Part shown: positions 19,245 to 31,653 of the stretch, piece after piece | Numbering within the stretch: position 1 is the stretch's first letter | Layout: each line of letters starts with the position of its first letter | IMG/VR virus record: IMGVR_UViG_3300020172_000524 | Location: 1-64,000 of that record | DNA from: a virus | Length of the DNA stretch: 64,000 nt | Reading direction: 5' to 3' (one strand) | Made by a program: the position numbers and the translations under genes | The notes under the pieces: model-generated | What the model was told of the DNA's origin: nothing | What the model saw: only the letters and a program-made list of their open reading frames with translations | Databases searched by the model: none

Positions 19245-22200
19245 ATGGATAACAAGATCAATCAGAATGTAGCAGGTTTAAACCTTGATTCGGTTAATTA
19301 CCAGATCAAGGAGAACATGATTACGTTTGCTCTAAACGCAAACATTCAGTCTCATGATGGTAACTCTACCACATACACTAATGAACCTTCTAACCAAATC
19401 TGTTATAATTTTACAACTAGTTATCCTGGCTATAAAATAGTAGGCACACTTAGTATCACAGAACAATCTAAGTTAATTGTATTCCTAGCTCATCCTGATG
19501 GACGTTCCTTAATAGGTGAGATAACTAACTTAAGTAAAGATTGTACTAGTCTTATAGAAACAGAAAAAGATTGTGGATGTATTTCTGGAACTGTTGTTAC
19601 AAACGTAGTTACAGAAGATAGTTCTTGTTGTTTGTTTACTCCTTTAGTAGTCGACAACTGTTGTGACTGTACAGACTGCTATAGATATGATGTACAGGCT
19701 ACAGACAACCAACCTTTTACGGTTGTATTTGTAGACTGTAACGGAGTAGAGACAAGTGAGACGTTTCCTTCAGGAATAGGAACTTTTAAAGCAAAACGAA
19801 ATAGGTTTATTTTACCTGTTAATGTAGAGATTCTATATTCAGTTTTAGACTCTCAAGGAACATGTATTCCTAAGAGTGCTCCTTGTTGTTTGGGTTTGTC
19901 TCCAGACTTTCCTGTCTACTCAGAATACAGAATAGATAACTGTGAGACTAAGGTTTACTTTATTGCTCGTAATATACAACCTCGTTATTTCTCATTAGAA
20001 GAGCCTTATGGCAGAGATCAATGTGGAGATGCCATTGACTGTATTACAGACTCTTGTGAACGCTTAAAACTATTTCCAGACTTCTGCCAACCTGATATCT
20101 ATCCTACTGCGGTAGACTCAGGAGGAACTTTAAAAGGTGGAGTATATTCTTTCTCTCTTGCTTACGCAGATGAGAATGGTAAAGAACTTACAGACTACGT
20201 AGATTTCTCTAATCCGATTCCAATCTTTGAGAGAGCTATCACTGAGCAGACTGAATACGAAACCTCTAAATCTATTAGAGTTTCTATAGATCACAGTACA
20301 GCAATCTTTGATTACTTTAACTTAGTCGTAGCTGAGAACATTAATGAAGTAACTACATACCAGTTGGTAGGTACTTATAGAGTTAACCAATCAACCTACA
20401 GAGATTCTTTGGTTTATACAGGAGATTACTCTTCTACTTTCTCTTCTATTGTTCCTTTGATTCGTAGTCCTCATTATGAGACTGCTGAGATTATTGAAAA
20501 GCAGAATGACATTCTAATGTTAGCTGACTTAGTAGAGACTCCTAAGTACAACTTTCAACTATTAGCAAACCAGATTAAACTTCGTTGGGAAACAGTTAAG
20601 ATGCCTGTGGATAATAAGTTTGACTTTTCTAATCCAGAAATTGCTTATTTCTTCCGCACTTATCAAAGAGATGAAGTTTATCCATTTGGTATTAAGTTTA
20701 AACTAAAGAACGGAAAGTATACAGATGTATTCCACATTCCTGGTAGAGAAGTATTTGTAAACTCTAACGAAGAAGAATTACTTTACTCTTCTAGTAATCC
20801 TGATGCTTTTGGTACATCTAATGATTGCATTGTAACTACAGCACAACCTAGATGGAAAGTTTACAACACAGCTACTACAGGACTTACTCCTCCAAACAAT
20901 ACTCCTTCTTTGCAGGAAGTTCAATACTCTTGTAAAATTACTGTTGAAACATCTGGAGAGTTTGCTTACTGGGAGTCTACTGAAACTTACCCTTGTTATG
21001 AGGATGTTTGGGGAACCTTAGCAGGTAAAGCTATACGTCACCACAAGTTTCCTGAGAATGCTAAGTCTCACATCCATGCAGATGGAGATGACTTTATTTA
21101 TCCTATTGGAGTACGTATTTGGAATGAGTCTTTATTTGAAGGCATATTAGACCAAGAAACTGTATACGATCCCTTAAACACTTACGGTAATCACCAGATT
21201 CCTGTTAAGGAACTTATCTGTGGTTACGAATTAGTAAGAGGTAATCGTGTAAATAACAAATCAGTTGTTGCTAAGGGACTTATCTATGACGTAGGAACTT
21301 TTATAAATGCTAAGACTGGGAAGTCTTACTACTATCCTAACTATCCCTATAACTCTTTACAAGATGATCCATACATTAAATCTACTCCTGATTGGTATAA
21401 TCAGGCAGATAGAGGCATTGATAAGGATCAAGATGGAATGAGGTTACATGAAGGATTCAACACAATTGGATCTCGCTATACATTCCATTCACCTGATACA
21501 CACTTTCAGTATCCTAAGATCGGTACAGAACTTAAACTAGAAACTGTAGAGTACGGTAAAGTACAAGGACACTTTGTTCCTGTATTAGATCACCCTAAAC
21601 ATAAGTTTTTAACCTTAGCTGATTATGCTACAGCTGCAACACTTGCTAATGCATTAGCTTTAGCGTTTGAAAGTGATACAGCCGTAAATACTACTGTTCC
21701 ACCTCCTCCTGGAGTAAGTACAACTATTAGTAATAAATCTAAAACAGATGCACTTTCTATTATAACCAACAACCAAGCGTTTATAGACTTAATAGAAAAG
21801 TTAATTCCTTTAGCAAACTTTGCTTATCAGTTTAACTCTATTGGAGAATACAAAAGATTCTTACCAATTACTACAATAGGAAACAGAAGAAGATTCTTAG
21901 ACATTGGACTTTACGCTAATGATAAGATCGTAGAACTGAATGATGACAAACCTATTCATAACAGATTAAGAGAGACTTCTGTTTATCTTAAGACAAACGG
22001 ATCTTTCTCTACAGAATATTCAAGTATCATAGACAACAGTCGCTATACTATTGGACAAAAAAACTTAGCAAAGGATCCAGAGCAGATAGTAGAATCTGAT
22101 ACTAGAGCCTACTATGCTTCTATCAAAAGAGAATTTCCAAATCAATATGGACAGATAGAAAATATTAAATATGTTTCTACTGGGTACTCTTGTTCTGTAT

Positions 22201-24326
22201 ACACAGATATTTCAGGAACACTTAAAATTAAAACTAAGTACTATCCTGCATTTGGTGGAGACACTTACATTAATAAGTTTGCACTTAAGCGTAAGCACTC
22301 TTTCTTTACTCGTAACTTAGCTAACTTACCAGCTAAAGTAGATAATGTTCCTTTTGATTACTGGTTGTATCCTAACTTAGGCTACCCTACTTACTATATC
22401 GGAGAATCTCCTGAAGATTTAAGTTCAGCAGCAACCGAAGCTTTAATAGCTGGAGTTGCAGCAGCTGCGGCTGCGGCATTAGCTGCAGGAGTTGTTACAG
22501 GAGCTTTAGTAGCAGGCAGTGTTTTAAATGCTGCTCTTACAGGAGTATTGGCTTCAATCTACAGTTTGTTTGTAAAGAAGAATAACTTAGATGCAGATCC
22601 TCAACCTTTCTTCTATCAGAAAGGATTCTTCTACACAGCTTCTTATGGTATTCCAGTATTCTATGTAGAGTCTGACATTAACGTAGACTTACGTCATGGA
22701 AGAAATGAATTAGAAGAAAACTTTTATCCTAACGTAGGAGATGGTATTCCTGATGACTGGTTGCATGAAGTAAACGTACCTATCAAGTTTGACAACTTTT
22801 ATAGTTACAATGCAACTTATTCTGCACAGAACTTAAGTCCTAACTTCCCATATAGATTAAAGTATCCTAAGTTAGAATGCTTGTCTATTCACCATAACCG
22901 TGTGATCTATTCTGATCCTGCAAACTCTTCTAACTATCTTTCAGATGCTTGGAGAGTATTCCGTCCAGGTAATTTCTATGACTTCCCTAAGCAAGGAGGA
23001 CGCTTAATAGATCTAAATGCAGGAGAGAACGAAAGAGTACATGCTAGATTTGAAAACACTACTAAGGTTTATAACTCTCGTATTACTTTAACTACTACTT
23101 CTCCTTATCAGTTAGAGATTGGAAGTGCAGAAATGTTCAAACAAAAACCTGTTGATTTAGCTAAGACTGATTTAGGTTACATAGGAACTCAACACAAAGC
23201 TTACGTTAAGTGTGAGTATGGAACATTCTGGGTAGATGCTAAACGTGGGCATATCTATCAGTTGACAGGTGAGGGTTTTAACGAAATTAAAACTGACAAC
23301 AACTTTAACTGGTTTAAACAAAACCTACCCTTCCAGATTCTTAAAGACATTCCTAATGCAGACATCGACAATCCTCCTATTGGATTAGGTATTGTTATGG
23401 GATGGGATGAAAGATACGAGAGAGTATTTATTACTAAACTAGACTACAGAGTTAAGCCTGAGTATAGACCTGGAAGTCCTTCAGTAGTTAAGTATATTAC
23501 AGACACTTCAGATAGCAACTATCGTAAGTATGTATTAGATAGTGGAAGTATTGAGGTAGAGATTACTTTTGGTGATCCAGCATTCTTCGAGAATAAATCT
23601 TGGACAGTAGCTTACTCACCTAAGTTGAAGAACTTTATTTCTTTCTACTCTTTCCTTCCTAACTTCTTTGTTCCCCAACTAGGTCACTTCCAAACCATAA
23701 TCAATACTTCTACAGGAGCGTCTACTTGGAATCATAACTTGTCGCTTTATAGTTATCAGACTTATTACAATATACTCTATCCTTATATAATCGAGTATAA
23801 TGTAAACTCTTTCCCACAAGTATCTACAATCAACTCTATTACTTTGATGCAGGACATACAAGAATACTATTCTGATTACGAGTACTATTCTTTGTCTACT
23901 GCTAACAAAAAGAACTTAGCAAACTTTACTAAGGCTATCATCTATAACAAAGAACAGTCTTCTGGTATCATTAAGTTGATACCTGAAGAGTTTGGTAACA
24001 CAAGACAGAAGATTACCTATCCTAGAATGACAGCAACAGGCATAGAAGCTCTTATCTCTCGTAGAGAACACTTGTATACCTTTAATGGATTTTGGAACGT
24101 TGCAGCTCAAGGAAATGGTCAACCTCTATGGTCAACTCAGTGGAGTGACTTAGTTACTCAGTACCCTATAGACAAAGTGCCTAATACTAAGAGTGTAAGA
24201 CCTGTATCTGTGTCTTATCAGAAGTCTAAGATTAAGTCTGACTTTGCTAAAGTCAGACTGATTCAAGATCAATACTCTAGATTTAAGTTTATTAACACCA
24301 TTCAAATAACCCAAACCAACCCATAA
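19245..24326 (+). CDS. Very large tail muzzle/tubular protein
   Basis: The 1693-residue protein is beta-rich throughout and follows the ring protein, as the muzzle protein does in crAss-like phages. It starts M-D-N-K-I-N-Q-N-V-A-G-L-N-L-D, a form typical of this family. Residues 100-145 hold a dense Cys cluster (C100, C110, C112, C128, C129, C139, C140, C142, C145). Around residues 1062-1112 is a long Ala/Gly/Val hydrophobic stretch unlike the rest. The C-terminus is polar. It should form the distal tail barrel and possibly the membrane-contacting tip. It is longer than most tail tubular proteins, so extra domains are likely, with the Cys region probably one of them. Confidence 0.7.
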   Translation: MDNKINQNVAGLNLDSVNYQIKENMITFALNANIQSHDGNSTTYTNEPSNQICYNFTTSYPGYKIVGTLSITEQSKLIVFLAHPDGRSLIGEITNLSKDCTSLIETEKDCGCISGTVVTNVVTEDSSCCLFTPLVVDNCCDCTDCYRYDVQATDNQPFTVVFVDCNGVETSETFPSGIGTFKAKRNRFILPVNVEILYSVLDSQGTCIPKSAPCCLGLSPDFPVYSEYRIDNCETKVYFIARNIQPRYFSLEEPYGRDQCGDAIDCITDSCERLKLFPDFCQPDIYPTAVDSGGTLKGGVYSFSLAYADENGKELTDYVDFSNPIPIFERAITEQTEYETSKSIRVSIDHSTAIFDYFNLVVAENINEVTTYQLVGTYRVNQSTYRDSLVYTGDYSSTFSSIVPLIRSPHYETAEIIEKQNDILMLADLVETPKYNFQLLANQIKLRWETVKMPVDNKFDFSNPEIAYFFRTYQRDEVYPFGIKFKLKNGKYTDVFHIPGREVFVNSNEEELLYSSSNPDAFGTSNDCIVTTAQPRWKVYNTATTGLTPPNNTPSLQEVQYSCKITVETSGEFAYWESTETYPCYEDVWGTLAGKAIRHHKFPENAKSHIHADGDDFIYPIGVRIWNESLFEGILDQETVYDPLNTYGNHQIPVKELICGYELVRGNRVNNKSVVAKGLIYDVGTFINAKTGKSYYYPNYPYNSLQDDPYIKSTPDWYNQADRGIDKDQDGMRLHEGFNTIGSRYTFHSPDTHFQYPKIGTELKLETVEYGKVQGHFVPVLDHPKHKFLTLADYATAATLANALALAFESDTAVNTTVPPPPGVSTTISNKSKTDALSIITNNQAFIDLIEKLIPLANFAYQFNSIGEYKRFLPITTIGNRRRFLDIGLYANDKIVELNDDKPIHNRLRETSVYLKTNGSFSTEYSSIIDNSRYTIGQKNLAKDPEQIVESDTRAYYASIKREFPNQYGQIENIKYVSTGYSCSVYTDISGTLKIKTKYYPAFGGDTYINKFALKRKHSFFTRNLANLPAKVDNVPFDYWLYPNLGYPTYYIGESPEDLSSAATEALIAGVAAAAAAALAAGVVTGALVAGSVLNAALTGVLASIYSLFVKKNNLDADPQPFFYQKGFFYTASYGIPVFYVESDINVDLRHGRNELEENFYPNVGDGIPDDWLHEVNVPIKFDNFYSYNATYSAQNLSPNFPYRLKYPKLECLSIHHNRVIYSDPANSSNYLSDAWRVFRPGNFYDFPKQGGRLIDLNAGENERVHARFENTTKVYNSRITLTTTSPYQLEIGSAEMFKQKPVDLAKTDLGYIGTQHKAYVKCEYGTFWVDAKRGHIYQLTGEGFNEIKTDNNFNWFKQNLPFQILKDIPNADIDNPPIGLGIVMGWDERYERVFITKLDYRVKPEYRPGSPSVVKYITDTSDSNYRKYVLDSGSIEVEITFGDPAFFENKSWTVAYSPKLKNFISFYSFLPNFFVPQLGHFQTIINTSTGASTWNHNLSLYSYQTYYNILYPYIIEYNVNSFPQVSTINSITLMQDIQEYYSDYEYYSLSTANKKNLANFTKAIIYNKEQSSGIIKLIPEEFGNTRQKITYPRMTATGIEALISRREHLYTFNGFWNVAAQGNGQPLWSTQWSDLVTQYPIDKVPNTKSVRPVSVSYQKSKIKSDFAKVRLIQDQYSRFKFINTIQITQTNP

Positions 24327-24330
24327 TATC

Positions 24331-24711
24331 ATGAAAGAAAAAGAACTCTTCACAACAGTTAAACCCGAAATAGTACTGGGACAGTTATTCCAGTCTAGGG
24401 ACATCATTCACTTAGCTCACTTACAGACAACTTCGTTTAGTGAGCACAAAGCTTTAGACGGTTACTACTCAGAAGTAATCGGTCTATTAGATGATTTAGT
24501 AGAAGCATACTTCGGAACTATTGGAAAACGCTTAAACTTTAAGATTCCTGGCTCAGAGTATATGAATGCTAAAGCTCATCTTACTTACATGAAAGATTAT
24601 GTAATGAAGCATCGTAATGTATTCGGAAACGAAAACACACACTTACAAAACATTGTAGACGAGATCATTGCTTTGATTACTTCTACTTTGTATCAATTGA
24701 CACTAAACTAA
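24331..24711 (+). CDS. Small helical protein, probably DUF5856-like
   Basis: The 126-residue, all-helical protein contains L-F-Q-S-R-D-I-I-H-L-A-H-L-Q-T-T-S-F-S-E-H-K-A-L and then D-D-L-V-E-A-Y-F-G. The spacing of His, Glu and Asp recalls a ferritin/Dps-type four-helix bundle. This pattern is familiar from crAss-like genomes, where it is annotated as DUF5856. The metal-binding suggestion is an inference from the residue pattern. It lies at the start of the internal-protein cluster, 4 bases after the muzzle gene. Confidence 0.6.
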   Translation: MKEKELFTTVKPEIVLGQLFQSRDIIHLAHLQTTSFSEHKALDGYYSEVIGLLDDLVEAYFGTIGKRLNFKIPGSEYMNAKAHLTYMKDYVMKHRNVFGNENTHLQNIVDEIIALITSTLYQLTLN

Positions 24712-24719
24712 ATAACTAT

Positions 24720-25115
24720 ATGAATCGTTTAAAGAAAGCTTATTCTTCCTGCATGATGTGTGGAGGTAAGAAGATGAAATCTGGCGGTAACTGGATTAAG
24801 AGTGCTATTAAAAAGCCAGGATCTTTTACTGCACAAGCTAAAAAAGCTGGTATGTCTGTACCTGCATTCCGTGATAAAGTGTTAGCTAATAAAGAAAAGT
24901 TCTCAAGTACAACTGTAAAAAGAGCTAACTTGGCTAAGACTCTTTCTAAGATGCGTAAAGGAGAAGATGGAATGTTGAATACGTCTGGTGTTAAGACTGT
25001 AAAAAGTATACCTATAAAAACTACTAAAGGTCAAACTAAGGAAATGCCAAAAATGAGTACCGTAACATCTAAGGATAAGTACGGTGTACGTAACGCTTCT
25101 TATCGTAAGAAATAA
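24720..25115 (+). CDS. Small basic virion-type protein
   Basis: The 131-residue product is Lys-rich. It begins with C-M-M-C-G-G-K-K-M-K-S-G-G-N-W-I-K and then K-K-P-G-S-F-T-A-Q-A-K-K-A-G-M-S. The 'W-I-K-x-A-I-K-K-P-G-x-F-T' element recurs in small basic proteins of large phages and giant viruses. DNA binding or packaging with the genome is plausible. Its stop overlaps the next start (TAATG). Confidence 0.6.
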   Translation: MNRLKKAYSSCMMCGGKKMKSGGNWIKSAIKKPGSFTAQAKKAGMSVPAFRDKVLANKEKFSSTTVKRANLAKTLSKMRKGEDGMLNTSGVKTVKSIPIKTTKGQTKEMPKMSTVTSKDKYGVRNASYRKK

Positions 25116-26551
25116 TGTTTGTCCCAGGAGTAAATGGTTCTGTAATTCCTAGTGTGTCTTCTGGCTCTAGGCTTAAGGGTGCATACAAGAATTCTAAGAA
25201 GCGTAGAATGGATAATGGGGGATGGGCTAACTGGACTCCTAATACAGGAAAGCCTTACTTAAGAACTAGTCCTGCAGGTAATGCAGGTTACTCTGACAAT
25301 ACTAAAGTAATTACTCAAAATACAAACGTTACTGCAGCTAATAGAAAAGCAGCAGAAGCTGCAGAGTATGCTAAACGTGTAGGTAGTGTTAGTCAGGGTA
25401 AAGTTAAATCTAACTATGAGAAAGCAAAAGAAGCCAGCTCATTAGTAGCACAAGCGCAACAACGTAAAGGTTCTGCTGATCCAATAGACTATGTATTAGA
25501 TGCTGTTAATCCTGTCAATTATGTTACTAATGCTATTGATTTAGTCGGTAATACAGGATCTGCGGTTGTTAATGCTTCTCAAGGAAATTTTGCTGAAGCA
25601 GGAGTTGATTTACTAGGCGCAGGATTGAATGCACTTGATGTTGTGCCCTTAACTAGAGGTTTAGGTTTAGGAAAAATAGCAAAACCTGCGATTAAAAAAG
25701 TTGCACAACCTTTTCTAAAGTACGCAGATGATGTAGTACAAACTTCTAAGATTGCAGGTAAACCTGCACTGCCTACTTACAAAAATGTGTATAGAGGAGA
25801 GCATGCAAACTTTAATACTATGGCAAAACCTGACGATTTTACGGGTAGGTGGGCACTAGATAATCCTAAAGACGTAGAGTTTTATGTGGGAAACTTAAAA
25901 ACTCCTAGAGGAGATTCTTATACTACAAGTAATTATTTTAAAGGAGAAGTAGAGCCTGTAAGAATAATGAGGGATAGACTTCCTGAGTATAAAATGAAAC
26001 AACAATTTGCGGAAGGTATGCCAGAGGAAGCACGAATTATGAGTATGGGTAGAGGTAAGTTGACTGATAAAGAACTTGCTAGTGTTTTAGGTGACGGTGC
26101 TGCTGATAGAATACGGAAGGGTATTCTAACAGAAATGGATTACAACAGTATGTCTACTGCTCCTTTTATGTACAATACAGCAGAGGGTATACTTGATGCA
26201 AACAGAATGAATCAACTACGTAAGGGTGAAAATACTTTTTTAGGTCGGGGAAAAACTAACTTGTTTCCAGATCAAAAGCAAGCTATTGACTATATAAGTA
26301 ATCAGTCAAAAGGACAAAAAAATAGTTCTCTAATTAGTAAATACCTACCTTTTAGTACTTATAAAAACGGAGGAGAAGTAGAAGATGATGACGATAAACA
26401 AATGGTAGATGGAGTAGCAAGTATCCTTAGAGACGTAAAGAGTAAAGAGAACAGATTACAGTTAGCTAACAAGATGGCTAAACAGTTTAACAGAGAAAAG
26501 GTAAACTATAATTTACCACAATTCCTAGCTAAATCCAAAGTAAAAAAATGA
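25115..26551 (+). CDS. Internal virion protein with ADP-ribosyltransferase-like region
   Basis: The product has 478 residues. Residues 1-120 are basic and disordered (M-D-N-G-G-W, many Lys/Ala). Residues 122-200 resemble the linker that precedes toxin domains in polymorphic toxins (D-P-I-D-Y-V-L-D-A-V-N-P-V-N-Y-V, then D-L-L-G-A-G-L-N-A-L-D-V-V-P). Residues 226-309 have three elements in ART order: Y-R-G (226-228), G-R-W-A-L-D-N-P-K-D-V-E-F-Y-V (244-258), and E-E-A-R-I-M (304-309). The C-terminus has T-Y-K-N-G-G-E-V and a charged tail. An ADP-ribosylating enzyme delivered with the DNA is a hypothesis. The fold cannot be confirmed by eye, and it may be purely structural. Confidence 0.5.
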   Translation: MFVPGVNGSVIPSVSSGSRLKGAYKNSKKRRMDNGGWANWTPNTGKPYLRTSPAGNAGYSDNTKVITQNTNVTAANRKAAEAAEYAKRVGSVSQGKVKSNYEKAKEASSLVAQAQQRKGSADPIDYVLDAVNPVNYVTNAIDLVGNTGSAVVNASQGNFAEAGVDLLGAGLNALDVVPLTRGLGLGKIAKPAIKKVAQPFLKYADDVVQTSKIAGKPALPTYKNVYRGEHANFNTMAKPDDFTGRWALDNPKDVEFYVGNLKTPRGDSYTTSNYFKGEVEPVRIMRDRLPEYKMKQQFAEGMPEEARIMSMGRGKLTDKELASVLGDGAADRIRKGILTEMDYNSMSTAPFMYNTAEGILDANRMNQLRKGENTFLGRGKTNLFPDQKQAIDYISNQSKGQKNSSLISKYLPFSTYKNGGEVEDDDDKQMVDGVASILRDVKSKENRLQLANKMAKQFNREKVNYNLPQFLAKSKVKK

Positions 26552-26997
26552 AACAAATGATAAAACGTAAGGATGGATCTTACTCACAAAGAGGTTTGTG
26601 GGATAACATCCGTGCTAACAAAGGATCTGGTAAAAAGCCTACAAAAGAAATGCTTAAGCAAGAGACTAAGATTAAAAAAGAAAGTCGCTTAAAGAAGGCA
26701 TACATGGCTAAAGGTGGAAACATTGCTAAGACTACTAAAGGTCCAGGAGCAAACTATCGTCCTACTAAATCAGGAGCAGGTATGACTCAGAAAGGTGTAA
26801 TGGCTTATCGTAGAGCAAACCCTGGATCTAAACTAAGCACTGCTGTTACAGGTAATGTAAAGGCTGGTAGCAAAGCAGCCAATCGTAGAAAGTCTTATTG
26901 TGCTAGATCATTAGGTCAGCTACGTAGATCTAAACAGTCTACACAGAATGATCCTAATAGCAGAATACGTCAAGCACGTAGACGCTGGAAGTGCTAA
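26548..26997 (+). CDS. Small basic protein, DUF6321-like
   Basis: This 149-residue, strongly basic protein contains K-G-V-M-A-Y-R-R-A-N-P-G-S-K-L-S-T-A-V-T, then R-R-K-S-Y-C-A-R-S, and ends N-D-P-N-S-R-I-R-Q-A-R-R-R-W-K-C. This arrangement is known from phages and giant viruses as a domain of unknown function (I believe DUF6321). It also has the Y-M-A-K-G-G-N element found in its neighbours. A packaged DNA-binding role is likely from its charge and location. Start and preceding stop overlap (ATGA). Confidence 0.65.
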   Translation: MKQMIKRKDGSYSQRGLWDNIRANKGSGKKPTKEMLKQETKIKKESRLKKAYMAKGGNIAKTTKGPGANYRPTKSGAGMTQKGVMAYRRANPGSKLSTAVTGNVKAGSKAANRRKSYCARSLGQLRRSKQSTQNDPNSRIRQARRRWKC

Positions 26998-26999
26998 GA

Positions 27000-27029
27000 A
27001 CTAAATAAACTAAATAAACTAAAACTAAA
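27000..27029 (+). repeat. Four ACTAAA repeats in the leader of a small basic gene
   Basis: ACTAAA occurs at 27000, 27009, 27018 and 27024, directly before ATG 27033. Single or double copies of this element precede other starts in the window (for example before 5684), so it seems to be a leader element rather than random AT-rich DNA. Confidence 0.6.
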
Positions 27030-27032
27030 TAT

Positions 27033-27188
27033 ATGGCCGCTAAAGCATCTAAATCAAAATCAACTTCTACTGCTTCCAAGTTTAAAGTTAAACCAAAGAT
27101 CCGCAGAAAAGGAGTAGTAGCAAAAACTAAAGCTTCAAAGTTAAAGTCTAGTAAGAACTACTTAAAGAAATCAAGAGGTCAGGGGTAA
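27033..27188 (+). CDS. 51-residue Lys/Ser-rich basic protein
   Basis: ATG 27033 to TAA 27186-27188 encodes a protein made largely of Lys, Ser, Ala and Thr, starting M-A-A-K-A-S-K-S-K-S and ending K-S-R-G-Q-G. The composition resembles a histone tail or protamine, and it is the third small basic protein within 2.5 kb. A role in DNA condensation in the capsid is inferred. The stop codon lies inside the left arm of the terminator that follows. Confidence 0.6.
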   Translation: MAAKASKSKSTSTASKFKVKPKIRRKGVVAKTKASKLKSSKNYLKKSRGQG

Positions 27189-27210
27189 GCAATTACCCCT
27201 TGCTTTTTTT
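27181..27210 (+). terminator. Intrinsic terminator overlapping the stop codon
   Basis: AGGGGTAA (27181-27188) pairs with TTACCCCT (27193-27200) around GCAA, then TGCTTTTTTT. The left arm includes the TAA of the preceding small gene, and the last bases of the right arm lie in the TTG of the next promoter. Confidence 0.85.
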
Positions 27211-27229
27211 TATTAATCTTGTATATTTG
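27200..27229 (+). promoter_or_regulatory. Bacteroidota-type promoter of the cargo/giant protein segment
   Basis: TTG (27200-27202) and TATATTTG (27222-27229) are 19 bases apart. The promoter is interlocked with the preceding terminator. It would drive the gene at 27293 and probably those beyond. Confidence 0.75.
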
Positions 27230-27292
27230 TATAACTAGCTTATTTCCAAGCACTTATTAACATCTTAAGTTAATAACATTAAACATTAAAAC

Positions 27293-29953
27293 ATGTTAAG
27301 AAGCAATCTTTTTAAGAGATTCAGTAAGAAGAAATTCGAAGATGCAGGTACTGTAACAAAACCTGAAGAAACAGGTTTGTCTATACCTACCGTAGAAGAT
27401 ATTAAAAAGAACTTTGGTATTAATAATCCCTTTGTTCTAGATGGTTATACTACTCCCGAACAACCTAAAGGTACTGTTAGTACTACTGAAAGTTCTTTTG
27501 CCCCAGGTACATTTAGCGACCTAGTTAAGAGTCCTATGTTTACTACAGGATTTTCTCCTTTGAATCCTTACGATATCAATCCTAAGACTCCAGAACCAGA
27601 GCAAGGTCCAATGACTAAGGAACAGAGTGATTACTTTGTTCTAGATCAAAGTATGCCAGAAACTAAAACTCCTGAAACCAAAGAAGATAACAGACCTGCT
27701 ATGGTCTCTTTAGGCTTACTAGGATTTAATGCTTTACTTGGTAAGAACGAAGATTTACAGAATCAACAAAGTTTTAACGAATCAATTCAACAAAGAAACT
27801 CTAAACCTATTAATGACTATAACTTTAAGTACGGTCCTAATAGCAGTGGAGGTACAGAGTTTCAACCTACAATCAAAGCCGAAATGGGTGCAAAAATAAA
27901 CAAACGTTATGCTAGTGAAGGCATGAACGATGTAGAGATTGAAGGAGGAGAGTTTATCCAACTTCCAAACTTAGAGACAGAAATGGCTGAAGGGCTTTCT
28001 CACGAGAATGGAGGTATTCCTACTAATCTACCTAATCAGACTCGTGTCTACTCTAACAACTTAAAGCCAGAAGGTTCTAAGAAAACTTTTGCTCAGCTTG
28101 CTAAGAACTACGATACTACTTCATATAAGAAGATCTTAGACAATAACTTTGCTAAGCAAGTAGATAAAGATACTGCACAGATAATGATGCAGAGAAACCA
28201 AAAGATCCTAGATCAATTGTTTTCAGATCAACAAGCAATGAATGGCAACTCTAACGGAGAGTTAGAAGCTAAGAATGGAGCAGGTATTAATAACCCAGGA
28301 TTTAAATCATTACCTGGTTATGTACAAGCTAAGATTATGTCTAATATGGCTGATGGAGGAGTGGATGATCCACTAAACGAGTTACCTAGAGTAAAAGCTA
28401 TTGATCCATTAAACTTAGCAGCTATGAGTACTCTTAATGCAATTGATCCTATACAAGAGTCATTTAGGCCTTTTGCTATGCCTGGGGGTCAAGTACCTCC
28501 TGCTAATAAAATGGAATACTTTGAGAGAGCATACTCTGATATCCTTTCTCAGAAGTTAAAGCCTAGAGCAACTATGATTGATCCTAGTGGTGATCTTCCT
28601 TCTGTTAAAGCTATTGATCCTACTAACGTAGAAGCAATGAAAACTCTTGCTCAATTAGAGTCTCAGTCTAACGTAGATGCACAAGAAAACCCTACTTCTA
28701 GTGCTTCTCCTGCAATGACTGCAGCAGCTAATACTTCTAATATTGCAGCTCGTAGTAAGAATGCAATGTTTGATCCTACCAAACCTGCAATGCCTGCACA
28801 CACTGGTCCTGAAAAACAATTCTTAACAGGTATAGATCCTAGTATAGATCCAAGTTTACAGATGGTTCCAGGAGTTCAACCTAGCTTAGGTACAGGTGTA
28901 TACGGAGAGGCTTCTAACATTGAGACCTTTACTAAGAATTATGGTTGGTACTTGGATGACTTGAAAGCAAGTGGAGAGACATTTGATCCTAAAAATGAGG
29001 GTAGTGTTCGTAGAGCACAAGTTGCTTTTACAGAAGAAGCTTATAACAGATTTAGAAGAGAAGGACTTTCAGAACAAGAAGCAAGAACTAAAGCAGACGA
29101 AGTAGGATTTACTGCAGTAAAAGGTTTACAGAATTCTGTAGATGACATGTTAGGATTGTACACAGCAACACGTGTACTTCCTGAAAGCAAAAAGACTCCT
29201 ACTCCTGTTACTCCTGGAGATAAACCTTTTATGGATTTAATTGATGGAGAGACTCCTCAGCCAGAAAAAGGTAAGTCTAATATTCCTAGAACAGGAGAAA
29301 CTCCAAAAGGAACTCCAGGAAGAACCTTTACTCCTGCGGGATCTCCTGCTAAAGGTAAGTACATTCCAGGACAGTTTCCTTTGTATCAGGCTATTCCTGA
29401 GGCTATGGGATTAGCTCAAGCACAACAGATTTATCCTTATGCTATTCCTGAGATTGACTCTCCTTACGTACGTCCTCAAACATTAAACATTCAAAGTCAA
29501 TTACAAGATATTGATAGCATGGCTACTGCAACTCAAAGAGCAGGAGGAGATCCTTTGACTACTTACATTGCAGGATTAGACGCTAAACAGAAAGCTTTCC
29601 AAGCTAAGCAAAACTTTGATGCTCAGGGACGCTCTCAAGCTGACATGGCTAATGCTCAAACTAGAATGCAAGCTGATCAAATCAACGCTCAGTACTTTGA
29701 TCGTGTATATAATAATTTAGTAGGTCAAGCAAGAGATGCACAGTCTGCAGAAAAACAAGCAGCTATTGCAAGCGTTACAAATAAAAAGGCTAAATTTACA
29801 CAGGACGAAACTAAGAAGTCTGCTTACATTAATGCTTTAATGGAAAACTACGATGTAGACTCTAAAGGTAACTTTACTTTAAAGCCAGGTAAGAATCCTG
29901 TTATAAATTCTAATCCAGCAAAAACTGCCAAGAAAGGCATGTATAAAAAATAA
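27293..29953 (+). CDS. Large internal (cargo) virion protein
   Basis: The 886-residue protein has a Pro/Thr-rich disordered N-terminal ~200 residues. A conserved-looking module around residues 196-280 follows (M-N-D-V-E-I-E-G-G-E, then H-E-N-G-G-I-P-T-N-L-P-N and K-K-T-F-A-Q-L-A-K-N-Y-D-T), seen in many large Bacteroidota phages. Next come repeats around P-R-V-K-A-I-D-P-L-N and P-S-V-K-A-I-D-P-T-N. The C-terminus is an Ala/Gln coiled coil with a Lys tail. It is likely an internal protein ejected with DNA. The repeat pair (V-K-A-I-D-P) suggests internal duplication. No enzymatic motif was found. Confidence 0.6.
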   Translation: MLRSNLFKRFSKKKFEDAGTVTKPEETGLSIPTVEDIKKNFGINNPFVLDGYTTPEQPKGTVSTTESSFAPGTFSDLVKSPMFTTGFSPLNPYDINPKTPEPEQGPMTKEQSDYFVLDQSMPETKTPETKEDNRPAMVSLGLLGFNALLGKNEDLQNQQSFNESIQQRNSKPINDYNFKYGPNSSGGTEFQPTIKAEMGAKINKRYASEGMNDVEIEGGEFIQLPNLETEMAEGLSHENGGIPTNLPNQTRVYSNNLKPEGSKKTFAQLAKNYDTTSYKKILDNNFAKQVDKDTAQIMMQRNQKILDQLFSDQQAMNGNSNGELEAKNGAGINNPGFKSLPGYVQAKIMSNMADGGVDDPLNELPRVKAIDPLNLAAMSTLNAIDPIQESFRPFAMPGGQVPPANKMEYFERAYSDILSQKLKPRATMIDPSGDLPSVKAIDPTNVEAMKTLAQLESQSNVDAQENPTSSASPAMTAAANTSNIAARSKNAMFDPTKPAMPAHTGPEKQFLTGIDPSIDPSLQMVPGVQPSLGTGVYGEASNIETFTKNYGWYLDDLKASGETFDPKNEGSVRRAQVAFTEEAYNRFRREGLSEQEARTKADEVGFTAVKGLQNSVDDMLGLYTATRVLPESKKTPTPVTPGDKPFMDLIDGETPQPEKGKSNIPRTGETPKGTPGRTFTPAGSPAKGKYIPGQFPLYQAIPEAMGLAQAQQIYPYAIPEIDSPYVRPQTLNIQSQLQDIDSMATATQRAGGDPLTTYIAGLDAKQKAFQAKQNFDAQGRSQADMANAQTRMQADQINAQYFDRVYNNLVGQARDAQSAEKQAAIASVTNKKAKFTQDETKKSAYINALMENYDVDSKGNFTLKPGKNPVINSNPAKTAKKGMYKK

Positions 29954-29964
29954 AATTTAAACCT

Positions 29965-31653
29965 ATGCCAATTTCAGCACAACATACCAAATTTGTCTAT
30001 CCTGATTATGTATCTGCTTTACCAGCAGACGACTTAATCAATCTTGCTGTTAAGAAGCAAGAGATGTACACTGAGGGACTAGCTAAAGTACAACAGAACG
30101 TAGATGCTTATGGCCAGTTAAGAAACAACATTAAAACAGACGTAGAGCGTGAGTACTTTGATAAAACAATGGATAACCTAGTTAACACCATTAACCAAAG
30201 TGCAGGCTTAGACTTTTCTATGAAAGGTAACGTACAAGCTGTTTTAAACATTGGAAAACCCTTAGAAAGAGACGAATACATTACTACTGCTATTTCTAAC
30301 GGTAAAGAGATTACTCGTAGACAAGAAACTTTATCTAAACTTAAGTCTAATGAAAGAAGTGCTGCTAATGATGCAGATTACTTTGAAGATGTTCAAGACT
30401 ACATGAAGAGTGGTAAACTAGGTTACAAGTTAGGCACTAAAGAATACACTCCATACATTGACATCTCTAAGGAGATCAATGAACGTATGAAGGGAGCTAA
30501 AGAAAACGGTACTGTAGATATTATGATGGATGGTAAATACATTCGTACTGAATCTACAAAAGGTTTAACTAATGATCAAGTTGCTGCAAAAATTAGAGCA
30601 GGACTAGGAGGTAAAGAATATAATCAACTTCGTATAGATGCAATGTATGACCTTAAGCAAAGAGGAGTAGAACAGGGACATGCTGAGGTTGTTAACTACT
30701 ATAGTAATCTTAAACAAACAAGCGAAGCCATTCTATTACAAAGCCAAAACAATCTTAAAGCAGCACAAGATGCTTACGCTAAAGCTCCTACAGAAAGTGC
30801 AAGACTAGATCTTGAGGCTGTTAGAGGTCCTTTAGAAGAAGCGAGAACTCAAGTAGAAGTTGCTAATAAAAACTTAACTCAAGTATCTGATATAAACAAT
30901 TTCAATCCTAATCAATACGTTAATTTGTTTACAGATAAGTTTATCTCTAATCAGTCTAATGCATATGTTTACAAACAGGTAGAAGCAAAAATTGAAGCTG
31001 ATCCTTACGGTACAATTGAAGCAAATTCAAAAAAAGCAATGAACTTAGCTGCATTTAATAGTCAGTTACGTAGAGAAGAAGATAAAGAAAAAGAAAATAG
31101 AGCTGCTGCTAAACTTCCTGCTGATGCACGAGTTATCTCTGGTCTAGATGTCTATGACTTAGGAAGAGATCCAATTAAGTTGATGGATAATATAGTACAG
31201 AACTCTACTAAAGTAGATCCTCAAATAGGAACTGATATAACAGAAGCTAAGGCTTTATTAGAAGCAGCAGCTATTTCTACTAATCAAGGAAGAGCAGACA
31301 TTCAAAAAGCTATTACTTCTTTAAGAAATTCTTACAATTCTCTTTTAACAGATCACGATGTACAAGACAAAGCTTTAGATGGTCTGATAAGAAAGACTCA
31401 AGCAATACTTTCAGGATACAATAATTATGAAAGTAAAATTTCAGCTAAAGATAGTAAGTTTAAGAAAGGTGAATTCCCTGAAGTAAATTACGGTCCTGGA
31501 TCAATGCCAGCTGATGAATACTTTAAACTTCCCTTTATGGAGTTGTTACAATCTGATCAGACACAGATTTACTCTAGATCTCAAAGATCCGAAGGTAGCA
31601 TGGATTGGATGAACAACGTTCCTCTTACTCCTCCTTCTTCACCAACAACATAA
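29965..31653 (+). CDS. Internal virion protein, helical
   Basis: This 562-residue protein is highly helical and charged with no membrane segments. Its N-terminus, M-P-I-S-A-Q-H-T-K-F-V-Y-P-D-Y, then L-P-A-D-D-L-I-N-L-A-V-K-K-Q-E-M-Y, is a pattern seen in the protein set between tail and RNA polymerase genes of crAss-like phages. It is probably a cargo or ejection protein. Long coiled-coil stretches occur around residues 250-310. It lies 11 bases after the preceding cargo gene. Confidence 0.55.
   Translation: MPISAQHTKFVYPDYVSALPADDLINLAVKKQEMYTEGLAKVQQNVDAYGQLRNNIKTDVEREYFDKTMDNLVNTINQSAGLDFSMKGNVQAVLNIGKPLERDEYITTAISNGKEITRRQETLSKLKSNERSAANDADYFEDVQDYMKSGKLGYKLGTKEYTPYIDISKEINERMKGAKENGTVDIMMDGKYIRTESTKGLTNDQVAAKIRAGLGGKEYNQLRIDAMYDLKQRGVEQGHAEVVNYYSNLKQTSEAILLQSQNNLKAAQDAYAKAPTESARLDLEAVRGPLEEARTQVEVANKNLTQVSDINNFNPNQYVNLFTDKFISNQSNAYVYKQVEAKIEADPYGTIEANSKKAMNLAAFNSQLRREEDKEKENRAAAKLPADARVISGLDVYDLGRDPIKLMDNIVQNSTKVDPQIGTDITEAKALLEAAAISTNQGRADIQKAITSLRNSYNSLLTDHDVQDKALDGLIRKTQAILSGYNNYESKISAKDSKFKKGEFPEVNYGPGSMPADEYFKLPFMELLQSDQTQIYSRSQRSEGSMDWMNNVPLTPPSSPTT

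What the first reader, a model, noticed from the sequence alone, without database searches (positions are those of the whole stretch)
25115..26551. Virion cargo protein with an ADP-ribosyltransferase-like region behind a toxin-type linker
Seen: residues 122-200 look like the pre-toxin linker of polymorphic toxins. Residues 226-309 then hold Y-R-G, G-R-W-A-L-D-N-P-K-D-V-E-F-Y and E-E-A-R-I-M in the order of the R / S-T-x / E elements of ADP-ribosyltransferases (T4 Alt is a known packaged example). The middle serine motif is weak. Inference: an effector injected with the genome that modifies host proteins.
Basis: partly seen in the sequence, partly recalled or inferred. Interest (0 to 1): 0.7.

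Follow-up and report, generated by a model that had tools for sequence, protein, structure and literature searches.

The report
Swappable effector in crAss-like phage virions
A gene next to the tail-tip gene of a crAss-like bacterial virus encodes a probable virion-packed protein whose middle part is exchanged between relatives, in some for an ADP-ribosyltransferase-like enzyme; whether this virus's own version is such an enzyme could not be shown.

Summary
The ORF (25115-26551, 478 aa) and the quoted motifs are real. It lies 789 nt after the muzzle gene of a crAss-like phage. Its central domain (dom1) was found in 8 further IMG/VR records. Arg227, Glu304 and Glu305 are invariant in 6 of 6 aligned dom1 proteins, but none has Ser/Thr in the second motif. 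No library, PDB sequence search or profile comparison links dom1 to ADP-ribosyltransferases (ARTs), and its AlphaFold model failed (pLDDT 33.7): the ART label is neither shown nor refuted. The stronger result is the architecture. In 6 relatives the same linker (homology ends at residue 178-183) leads into another domain, dom2; in 2 of these the tail resumes at residue 417. Dom2 is modelled as an ART fold (pLDDT 83; all 50 listed VIA matches are ARTs or ART-fold by title or recall, but Z is only 5.1-6.9) and keeps its Arg in 45 of 45 rows. Proteins in the same interval of cultured Cellulophaga phage phi4:1 are annotated as virion proteins from MS/MS. Best reading: a polyvalent-type, exchangeable virion effector; dom1 probably, not demonstrably, ART-like.

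The parts
25115..26551 (+). Slot protein P0001 (478 aa): N-terminal segment, constant linker block, dom1, C-terminal tail
   Evidence: overlaps the stop of the preceding ORF (24720-25115) and the start of the next (26548-26997), so probably one transcription unit (inference)
25115..25222 (+). N-terminal segment, residues 1-36, ending in the motif M32-D-N-G-G36; relatives L001, L003 and L006 carry extra modules after it
   Evidence: blastp blocks: residues 1-36 or 1-59 align separately from the rest in these three
25217..25663 (+). Constant block, residues 35-183, shared with mosaic proteins that carry dom1 or dom2
   Evidence: homology ends at residue 178 or 183 in 6 of 6 dom2-type relatives (L005, L006, L020, L035, L037, L103)
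25475..25672 (+). Pre-toxin-like linker, residues 121-186; highest 19-residue Kyte-Doolittle mean 1.21, so no clear transmembrane helix
   Evidence: no Pfam match
25673..26359 (+). dom1, residues 187-415: candidate ART-like effector domain
   Evidence: alignment A6; found in 8 further IMG/VR records
25793..25795 (+). Arg227 codon (candidate ART strand-1 Arg)
   Evidence: R in 6 of 6
25844..25852 (+). Gly244-Arg245-Trp246 (second motif; no Ser/Thr follows)
   Evidence: GRW in 6 of 6; residues 247-248 AL, AL, AL, AL, AA, FL
26024..26029 (+). Glu304-Glu305 inside the invariant stretch G301 to G312 (GMPEEARIMSMG)
   Evidence: E, E in 6 of 6
26360..26374 (+). Second motif Y416-K-N-G-G420; homology between swapped relatives resumes here
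   Evidence: second blastp block starts at residue 417 in L005 and L006
26363..26548 (+). Constant tail, residues 417-478, acidic start and lysine-rich end
   Evidence: 71% (L005) and 77% (L006) identical although the central domains differ
19245..24326 (+). Muzzle protein (1693 aa), identifies a crAss-like phage
   Evidence: PF25731 crAss_MUZ E=1.7e-39
24331..24711 (+). 126 aa, DUF5856 / phrog_858
24720..25115 (+). 131 aa; in L001, L002 and L003 a 296-325 aa version; the L001 one has a peptidoglycan-binding match
   Evidence: PF09374 E=1.9e-5 in L001
26548..26997 (+). 149 aa, DUF6321
   Evidence: PF19846 E=1.4e-10
27293..29953 (+). 886 aa, cargo C1 by position (inference)
   Evidence: phrog_15413 E=4.7e-8; not compared directly with crAss001 gp45
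29965..31653 (+). 562 aa, cargo C2 by position; related to phi4:1 gp039
   Evidence: blastp E=2e-7, residues 31-228, to L112 27470-30394, annotated as virion protein from MS/MS

Best explanation
The ORF encodes a virion cargo protein of a crAss-like phage built like a polymorphic effector: a constant N-terminal and linker block, an exchangeable central effector domain, and a constant tail. It would be packed with the other cargo proteins encoded next to it, ejected through the tail ahead of or with the DNA, and act on host targets early in infection. In relatives the same place holds dom2, an ART-like domain, so the class of activity at this place is most likely NAD-dependent modification of host macromolecules. 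Dom1 is most likely a divergent ART-like domain using Arg227 and Glu304 or Glu305. Shown by calculation: architecture, exchange, conservation, the predicted ART-like fold of dom2, and MS/MS annotation of counterparts in phi4:1. Inferred: packaging in this phage, injection, and any activity of dom1.
For: Gene neighbourhood: muzzle PF25731 E=1.7e-39; of 55 slot-protein loci, 41 have a muzzle homologue upstream in the fetched DNA, 40 within 3.5 kb and 18 within 60 nt; 14 have no hit, some because the contig or flank ends there; near-duplicates included. Cultured relative: phi4:1 gp041, gp040 and gp039, directly after the muzzle homologue gp042, are noted 'annotation based on experimental MS/MS proteomics analysis', and gp039 matches the window's 562-aa ORF. 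Exchange: homology to P0001 stops at residue 178 or 183 in 6 dom2-type relatives and resumes at 417 in L005 and L006. Dom2: pLDDT 83.1, pTM 0.78; best Foldseek matches in PDB are Tpt1/KptA, CC0527 and Rhs TreTu; best BFVD match an ART-PolyVal-like protein, E=2.5e-5; all 50 listed VIA rows are ARTs or ART-fold by title or recall; Arg 45 of 45, Glu 42 of 45, Ser or Thr after the strand-2 aromatic 23 of 45. Dom1: R227, E304, E305 in 6 of 6. PF18760 ART-PolyVal matches at the thresholds used in 2 of 11 and 12 of 50 related records, 1 and 8 of them over the curated cut-off, in L087 in the same 857-aa protein as dom2.
Against: Dom1 has no detectable similarity to any ART: hmmscan, PDB sequences, hhalign against dom2 at probability 0.8% and 0.4%, home-made ART profile. 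Its model is uninformative. The Ser/Thr element is absent in 6 of 6. The window's record itself has no PF18760 match. The dom2 fold match is moderate: no PDB match with Foldseek E <= 0.001 and VIA Z at most 6.9, a range the tool says can reflect a common arrangement; its conserved Glu lies in the third predicted strand, not clearly at the canonical catalytic place. No virion proteomics exists for this phage in these data.
Confidence: 0.5

Rival explanations
1. The protein is an exchangeable virion effector, but dom1 is an enzyme or binding domain of another fold. The YR..GRW..EE order is accidental, and the invariant stretch GMPEEARIMSMG is part of a different site.
For: No ART match for dom1 by any method; no Ser/Thr in 6 of 6; the C-terminal half of dom1 is as conserved as the motif region. 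Mosaic slot proteins also carry other activities: SLT, VanY, lysozyme, glucosaminidase.
Against: At this place after the linker, the only other domain seen (6 of 6 dom2-type relatives) is ART-like by model, and dom1 keeps an invariant Arg and Glu pair.
Confidence: 0.33
2. The protein is a structural or ejection protein (part of the channel through the host envelope or a muzzle-associated plug) and dom1 is not an effector; the varying middle reflects host-envelope adaptation.
For: It lies beside the muzzle and cargo genes; neighbours and slot proteins bear peptidoglycan-binding or -cutting domains. PMC10172136 (passages seen) proposes channel formation for gp45 and gp46.
Against: No clear transmembrane segment; the exchanged dom2 looks like an enzyme fold; a wholesale domain swap with constant flanks is typical of effectors.
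Confidence: 0.13
3. Dom1 is an ART-derived, catalytically dead domain kept for binding NAD, nucleic acid or a partner protein.
For: Arg and Glu kept but Ser/Thr lost in 6 of 6.
Against: Arg227, Glu304 and Glu305 would be expected to drift in a dead enzyme; they are invariant down to about 48% identity.
Confidence: 0.1

Closest known systems
Polyvalent proteins of phages and conjugative elements (Iyer et al. 2017, PMC5512222; abstract, passages and the ARTs section seen)
   Same: Multi-domain proteins predicted to be injected with DNA; ART domains are described as their most common protein-modifying domain; peptidase and lysozyme domains occur. Slot relatives here combine dom2 with PF18760, SLT, VanY or glucosaminidase matches.
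   Different: The term 'crass' has 0 occurrences in that main text. P0001 itself has one candidate effector domain and no PF18760 match. The polyvalent ART family there is described as H-Y-D; dom2 is R-[S/T]-E-like and dom1 R-x-E-like.
Polymorphic toxin systems (PMC3482391; search listing only)
   Same: Constant N-terminal and linker part with an exchanged effector domain.
   Different: Phage-encoded in a virion gene block; a constant tail follows the effector; no immunity gene was looked for or identified beside it; no match to a Pfam pre-toxin model.
Phage T4 Alt (described in PMC5512222, section seen)
   Same: Virion-packed, injected ART with R-S-E type site is the functional model.
   Different: No sequence similarity found; no Ser/Thr in the second motif of dom1.
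Rhs toxin ARTs TreTu/TreX and the Tpt1/KptA fold
   Same: Among the best structural matches of dom2.
   Different: 7-19% sequence identity in the listed rows; this concerns dom2, not dom1.

Membership tests
ADP-ribosyltransferase superfamily (dom1) | ART split-beta fold | tested here: inconclusive
   AlphaFold2 on a 5-sequence alignment gave pLDDT 33.7, pTM 0.20
ADP-ribosyltransferase superfamily (dom1) | Strand-1 Arg (or His), conserved | tested here: met
   Arg227 in 6 of 6 rows; that it lies in a first strand is inferred
ADP-ribosyltransferase superfamily, R-S-E type (dom1) | Ser/Thr element of the second motif | tested here: not met
   Residues 247-248 are AL, AL, AL, AL, AA, FL in 6 of 6; so dom1 is not filed as an R-S-E ART
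ADP-ribosyltransferase superfamily (dom1) | Conserved catalytic Glu | tested here: inconclusive
   Glu304 and Glu305 in 6 of 6, but their structural place is unknown
ADP-ribosyltransferase superfamily (dom1) | Sequence-profile match to an ART family | tested here: not met
   No ART match: Pfam, PHROGs, NCBIfam, PDB sequences. Weak test: dom2 also lacks a confident match (only DUF3990, 1 of 45 members, E=0.16)
ADP-ribosyltransferase superfamily (dom2 of relatives) | ART fold | tested here: met
   pLDDT 83.1; 50 of 50 listed VIA rows ART or ART-fold by title or recall, Z 5.1-6.9; BFVD top match ART-PolyVal-like, E=2.5e-5. Moderate scores: PDB Foldseek best E=7.6e-3
ADP-ribosyltransferase superfamily (dom2 of relatives) | Arg, Ser/Thr and Glu elements | tested here: inconclusive
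   Arg 45 of 45; Ser or Thr 23 of 45 (Asn 11); Glu 42 of 45 but in the third predicted strand
Polyvalent proteins | Several effector domains with different activities in one polypeptide | tested here: not met
   P0001: one candidate effector domain. Longer slot relatives do combine several
Polyvalent proteins / virion effectors | Packaged in the virion and injected | not testable with these tools
   Only inferred from MS/MS notes on phi4:1 counterparts
Polymorphic toxins | Constant N-terminal part with exchangeable effector | tested here: met
   Homology break at residues 178-183 in 6 relatives
Polymorphic toxins | Recognised pre-toxin linker family | tested here: inconclusive
   No Pfam match at E <= 5; resemblance is by eye
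Polymorphic toxins | Adjacent immunity gene | not tested
   Next ORF is DUF6321, function unknown

The most novel reading that the evidence does not exclude
Crassvirus-type phages carry a dedicated effector-exchange site between the muzzle and the cargo genes, in which effector modules, among them ART-like ones, are bracketed by a short motif [YFM][KQAED]xGG that also marks neighbouring cargo proteins. The motif could be a packaging tag or a maturation cut site that frees single effectors from the mosaic protein before or after injection.
Probability: 0.25. Interest if true: 0.75.

Novelty: new variant of a known kind. Interest (0 to 1): 0.5.

Why it matters
Crassviruses dominate many gut viromes, and what they inject besides DNA and polymerase is largely unknown. 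If right, an identifiable gene position encodes exchangeable host-modifying effectors in this phage group, which makes their first minutes of infection testable in cultured relatives such as Cellulophaga phage phi4:1. It would also extend the packaged-ART strategy of phage T4 to phages with short tails and a muzzle.

Tried and rejected
Dom1 against PDB sequences: 4 weak unrelated matches, E 0.97-1.9, and none with the wider alignment. Dom1 against dom2 by hhalign: no relation seen. Dom1 against a profile built from ten PF18760 stretches: window dom1 ranked 247 and L032 dom1 445 of 501; the dom2 copies 108 and 196. Dom1 in phages: E=9 to phage Mx8 in two records, taken as chance; in plasmids one record at E=0.8. 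P0001 in phages at E <= 1: no match. Dom2-type queries in phages: none at 0.01, two at E 0.06 and 1, taken as chance. Genome contigs: none for dom1, one for dom2. Dom1 profile in 15 records: 5, window included; in 50 further records: 2, both already known. Herpes_UL21 match to P0001 (E=0.0035, 16.6 bits, cut-off 25) rejected as below cut-off and unrelated in context. Weak PF18760 matches in the 572- and 574-aa frames of G001 and G002 (E about 0.001) not pursued. A transmembrane role of the linker: not supported.

Literature: searches 'crassvirales' + 'adp-ribosyl' (8 papers), 'crass-like' + 'adp-ribosyltransferase' (5), (22 hold 3 of 4 terms, 12 listed; unspecific), 'crass' + 'polymorphic toxin' (17, 8 listed). 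Judging by titles and abstract starts none describes this protein; most of these papers were not opened, so this is no proof of absence from print.

Full report
What was given. The window lies in a 76,651-base virus record. A muzzle protein (PF25731, E=1.7e-39) makes it a crAss-like phage. The ORF in question starts 789 nt after the muzzle gene, overlaps both neighbours by a few bases and is followed by DUF6321, an 886-aa and a 562-aa ORF.

Check of the motifs. No ART model matches. Closest relatives came from IMG/VR: first 6 loci, then more with the linker and with improved alignments. Dom1 itself is in 8 further records; with the window these give 7 distinct proteins (L002 and L004 are the same sequence, as are L032 and L033). 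Six of the 7 are in alignment A6 (L001 left out; it is in A2, where the same Arg and Glu pair are invariant). In A6, 77 of 234 window positions are invariant, among them R227, E229, H230, G244-W246, Y257, E304, E305 and R307. The Ser/Thr of the classical second motif is absent in 6 of 6.

Dom1 remains unclassified. The model failed (pLDDT 33.7). PDB sequence searches, hhalign against dom2 (probability 0.8% and 0.4%) and a home-made ART profile gave nothing. These negatives are weak: dom2 also has no confident sequence match to ARTs although it models as an ART fold.

The exchange. Blastp of P0001 against ORFs of 56 fetched loci shows blocks. In L005, L006, L020, L035, L037 and L103 homology ends at residue 178 or 183; a different domain, dom2, follows. 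In L005 and L006 it resumes at residue 417 and runs to the end. In L001, L003 and L006 further modules are inserted near residues 30-36. In L032, L133 and L134 dom1 sits in longer mosaic proteins of 1810, 1054 and 971 aa. L081 matches only residues 119-195 (E=7e-8).

Dom2. A scan with alignment A3 brought 62 loci, and alignment A4 holds 45 rows. The model of the L005 copy has pLDDT 83.1 and pTM 0.78. Foldseek in PDB has no match at E <= 0.001, but its best 16 rows are Tpt1/KptA, CC0527, TreTu and pertussis S1 (CC0527 as an ART-fold protein is recalled). VIA: 114 of 995 chains have Z >= 2 and 62 have Z >= 5, best 6.9; of the 50 entries listed 46 are Tpt1/KptA or ART enzymes and toxins by title or recall, 3 are CC0527 and 1 is Agrobacterium 6b, both recalled as ART-fold. 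The tool warns that Z under 8 can be a common arrangement; the uniformity of the list is the better argument. In BFVD 5 matches reach E <= 0.001, the first an ART-PolyVal-like protein at 2.5e-5. Arg31 is in 45 of 45 rows, Glu90 in 42 of 45, Ser or Thr at position 59 in 23 of 45. Glu90 is in the third predicted strand, so its catalytic role is uncertain.

Virion link. In Cellulophaga phage phi4:1 the muzzle homologue gp042 and the next genes gp041, gp040 and gp039 are noted as annotated from MS/MS proteomics. gp041 (739 aa) has a phage tail lysozyme match (E=5.1e-32) and, by eye, a metallopeptidase-like part. gp039 is related to the window's 562-aa ORF (E=2e-7). The L019 mosaic protein matches phrog_24249 (tail) and phrog_36695 (virion structural protein); their lengths, 739 and 895, equal those of gp041 and gp040, so they probably come from these (inference). 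In 55 slot loci a muzzle homologue is found upstream in 41, within 3.5 kb in 40 and within 60 nt in 18; 14 gave none. The set includes near-duplicates and was chosen by hand. For the reference phage crAss001, passages of PMC10172136 describe cargo proteins stored in capsid and tail and ejected ahead of DNA.

Known context. Passages of PMC5512222 and PMC9503650 describe polyvalent proteins and packaged ARTs; the second states that about 44% of phage ARTs in its set lie in contexts suggesting packaging. 'Crass' has no occurrence in either main text. PF18760 ART-PolyVal is present in related records: 2 of 11 (1 over cut-off) and 12 of 50 (8 over cut-off), not in the window's own record.

A recurring motif. 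GG pairs in slot proteins are little enriched (8.4 per 1000 aa against 7.0 expected; muzzles 4.5 against 4.2), but their context is unusual. [YFM][KQAED]xGG occurs 149 times in 59,043 aa of 51 slot proteins, 171 times in 72,953 aa of 100 downstream ORFs and 19 times in 72,144 aa of 90 upstream ORFs. In the window: 5 in 1,644 aa of the four ORFs 24720-29953, 1 in 13,321 aa of 14 other large ORFs. The pattern was read off the same proteins before counting, and related proteins are not independent, so the contrast needs a fresh set. The two copies in P0001 (residues 32-36 and 416-420) lie at the block ends seen.

Verdict. The protein is best read as an exchangeable virion effector (about 0.75 by my estimate); that dom1 is ART-like is about even. 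The combined statement is given 0.5.

Noticed in passing
window 24720-29953 and slot loci: Short motif [YFM][KQAED]xGG about ten times denser in slot proteins and downstream cargo-side ORFs than in upstream ORFs (149/59,043, 171/72,953 and 19/72,144 aa), lying at module boundaries; pattern chosen after looking at the same data.
   Followed up: partly
L087 4600-7173: 857-aa slot protein holds both dom2 and a PF18760 ART-PolyVal match (residues 670-821, E=7e-14): two ART-like domains in one protein.
   Followed up: no
L001 3032-3922, L002 5108-6001, L003 4124-5101: The gene before the slot protein is 296-325 aa in these and 131 aa in the window (24720-25115); the L001 version has a peptidoglycan-binding match (PF09374 E=1.9e-5).
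   Followed up: partly
L005 7923-8654: ORF resembling a GIY-YIG homing endonuclease by eye (start MIVYKATNLINGKVYVGYT) between DUF6321 and the cargo gene; could help module exchange.
   Followed up: no
L104 (Candidatus Dependentiae MAG contig RXKB01000023.1): Only genome contigs match to dom2; the locus also has a DUF5856-like ORF (E=6e-12), so the contig may be a phage contig binned with the MAG.
   Followed up: no
L001 and L006, slot protein residues about 37-190: An inserted module of some 165 aa, rich in short repeated polar/aromatic stretches, looks beta-rich and outer-membrane-barrel-like by eye.
   Followed up: no
G002:C1:83183-83800 (L107, L110): Separate PF18760 ART-PolyVal frame over the cut-off (44.4 bits with neighbours) in the nearest relative of the window, absent from the window's record.
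   Followed up: no
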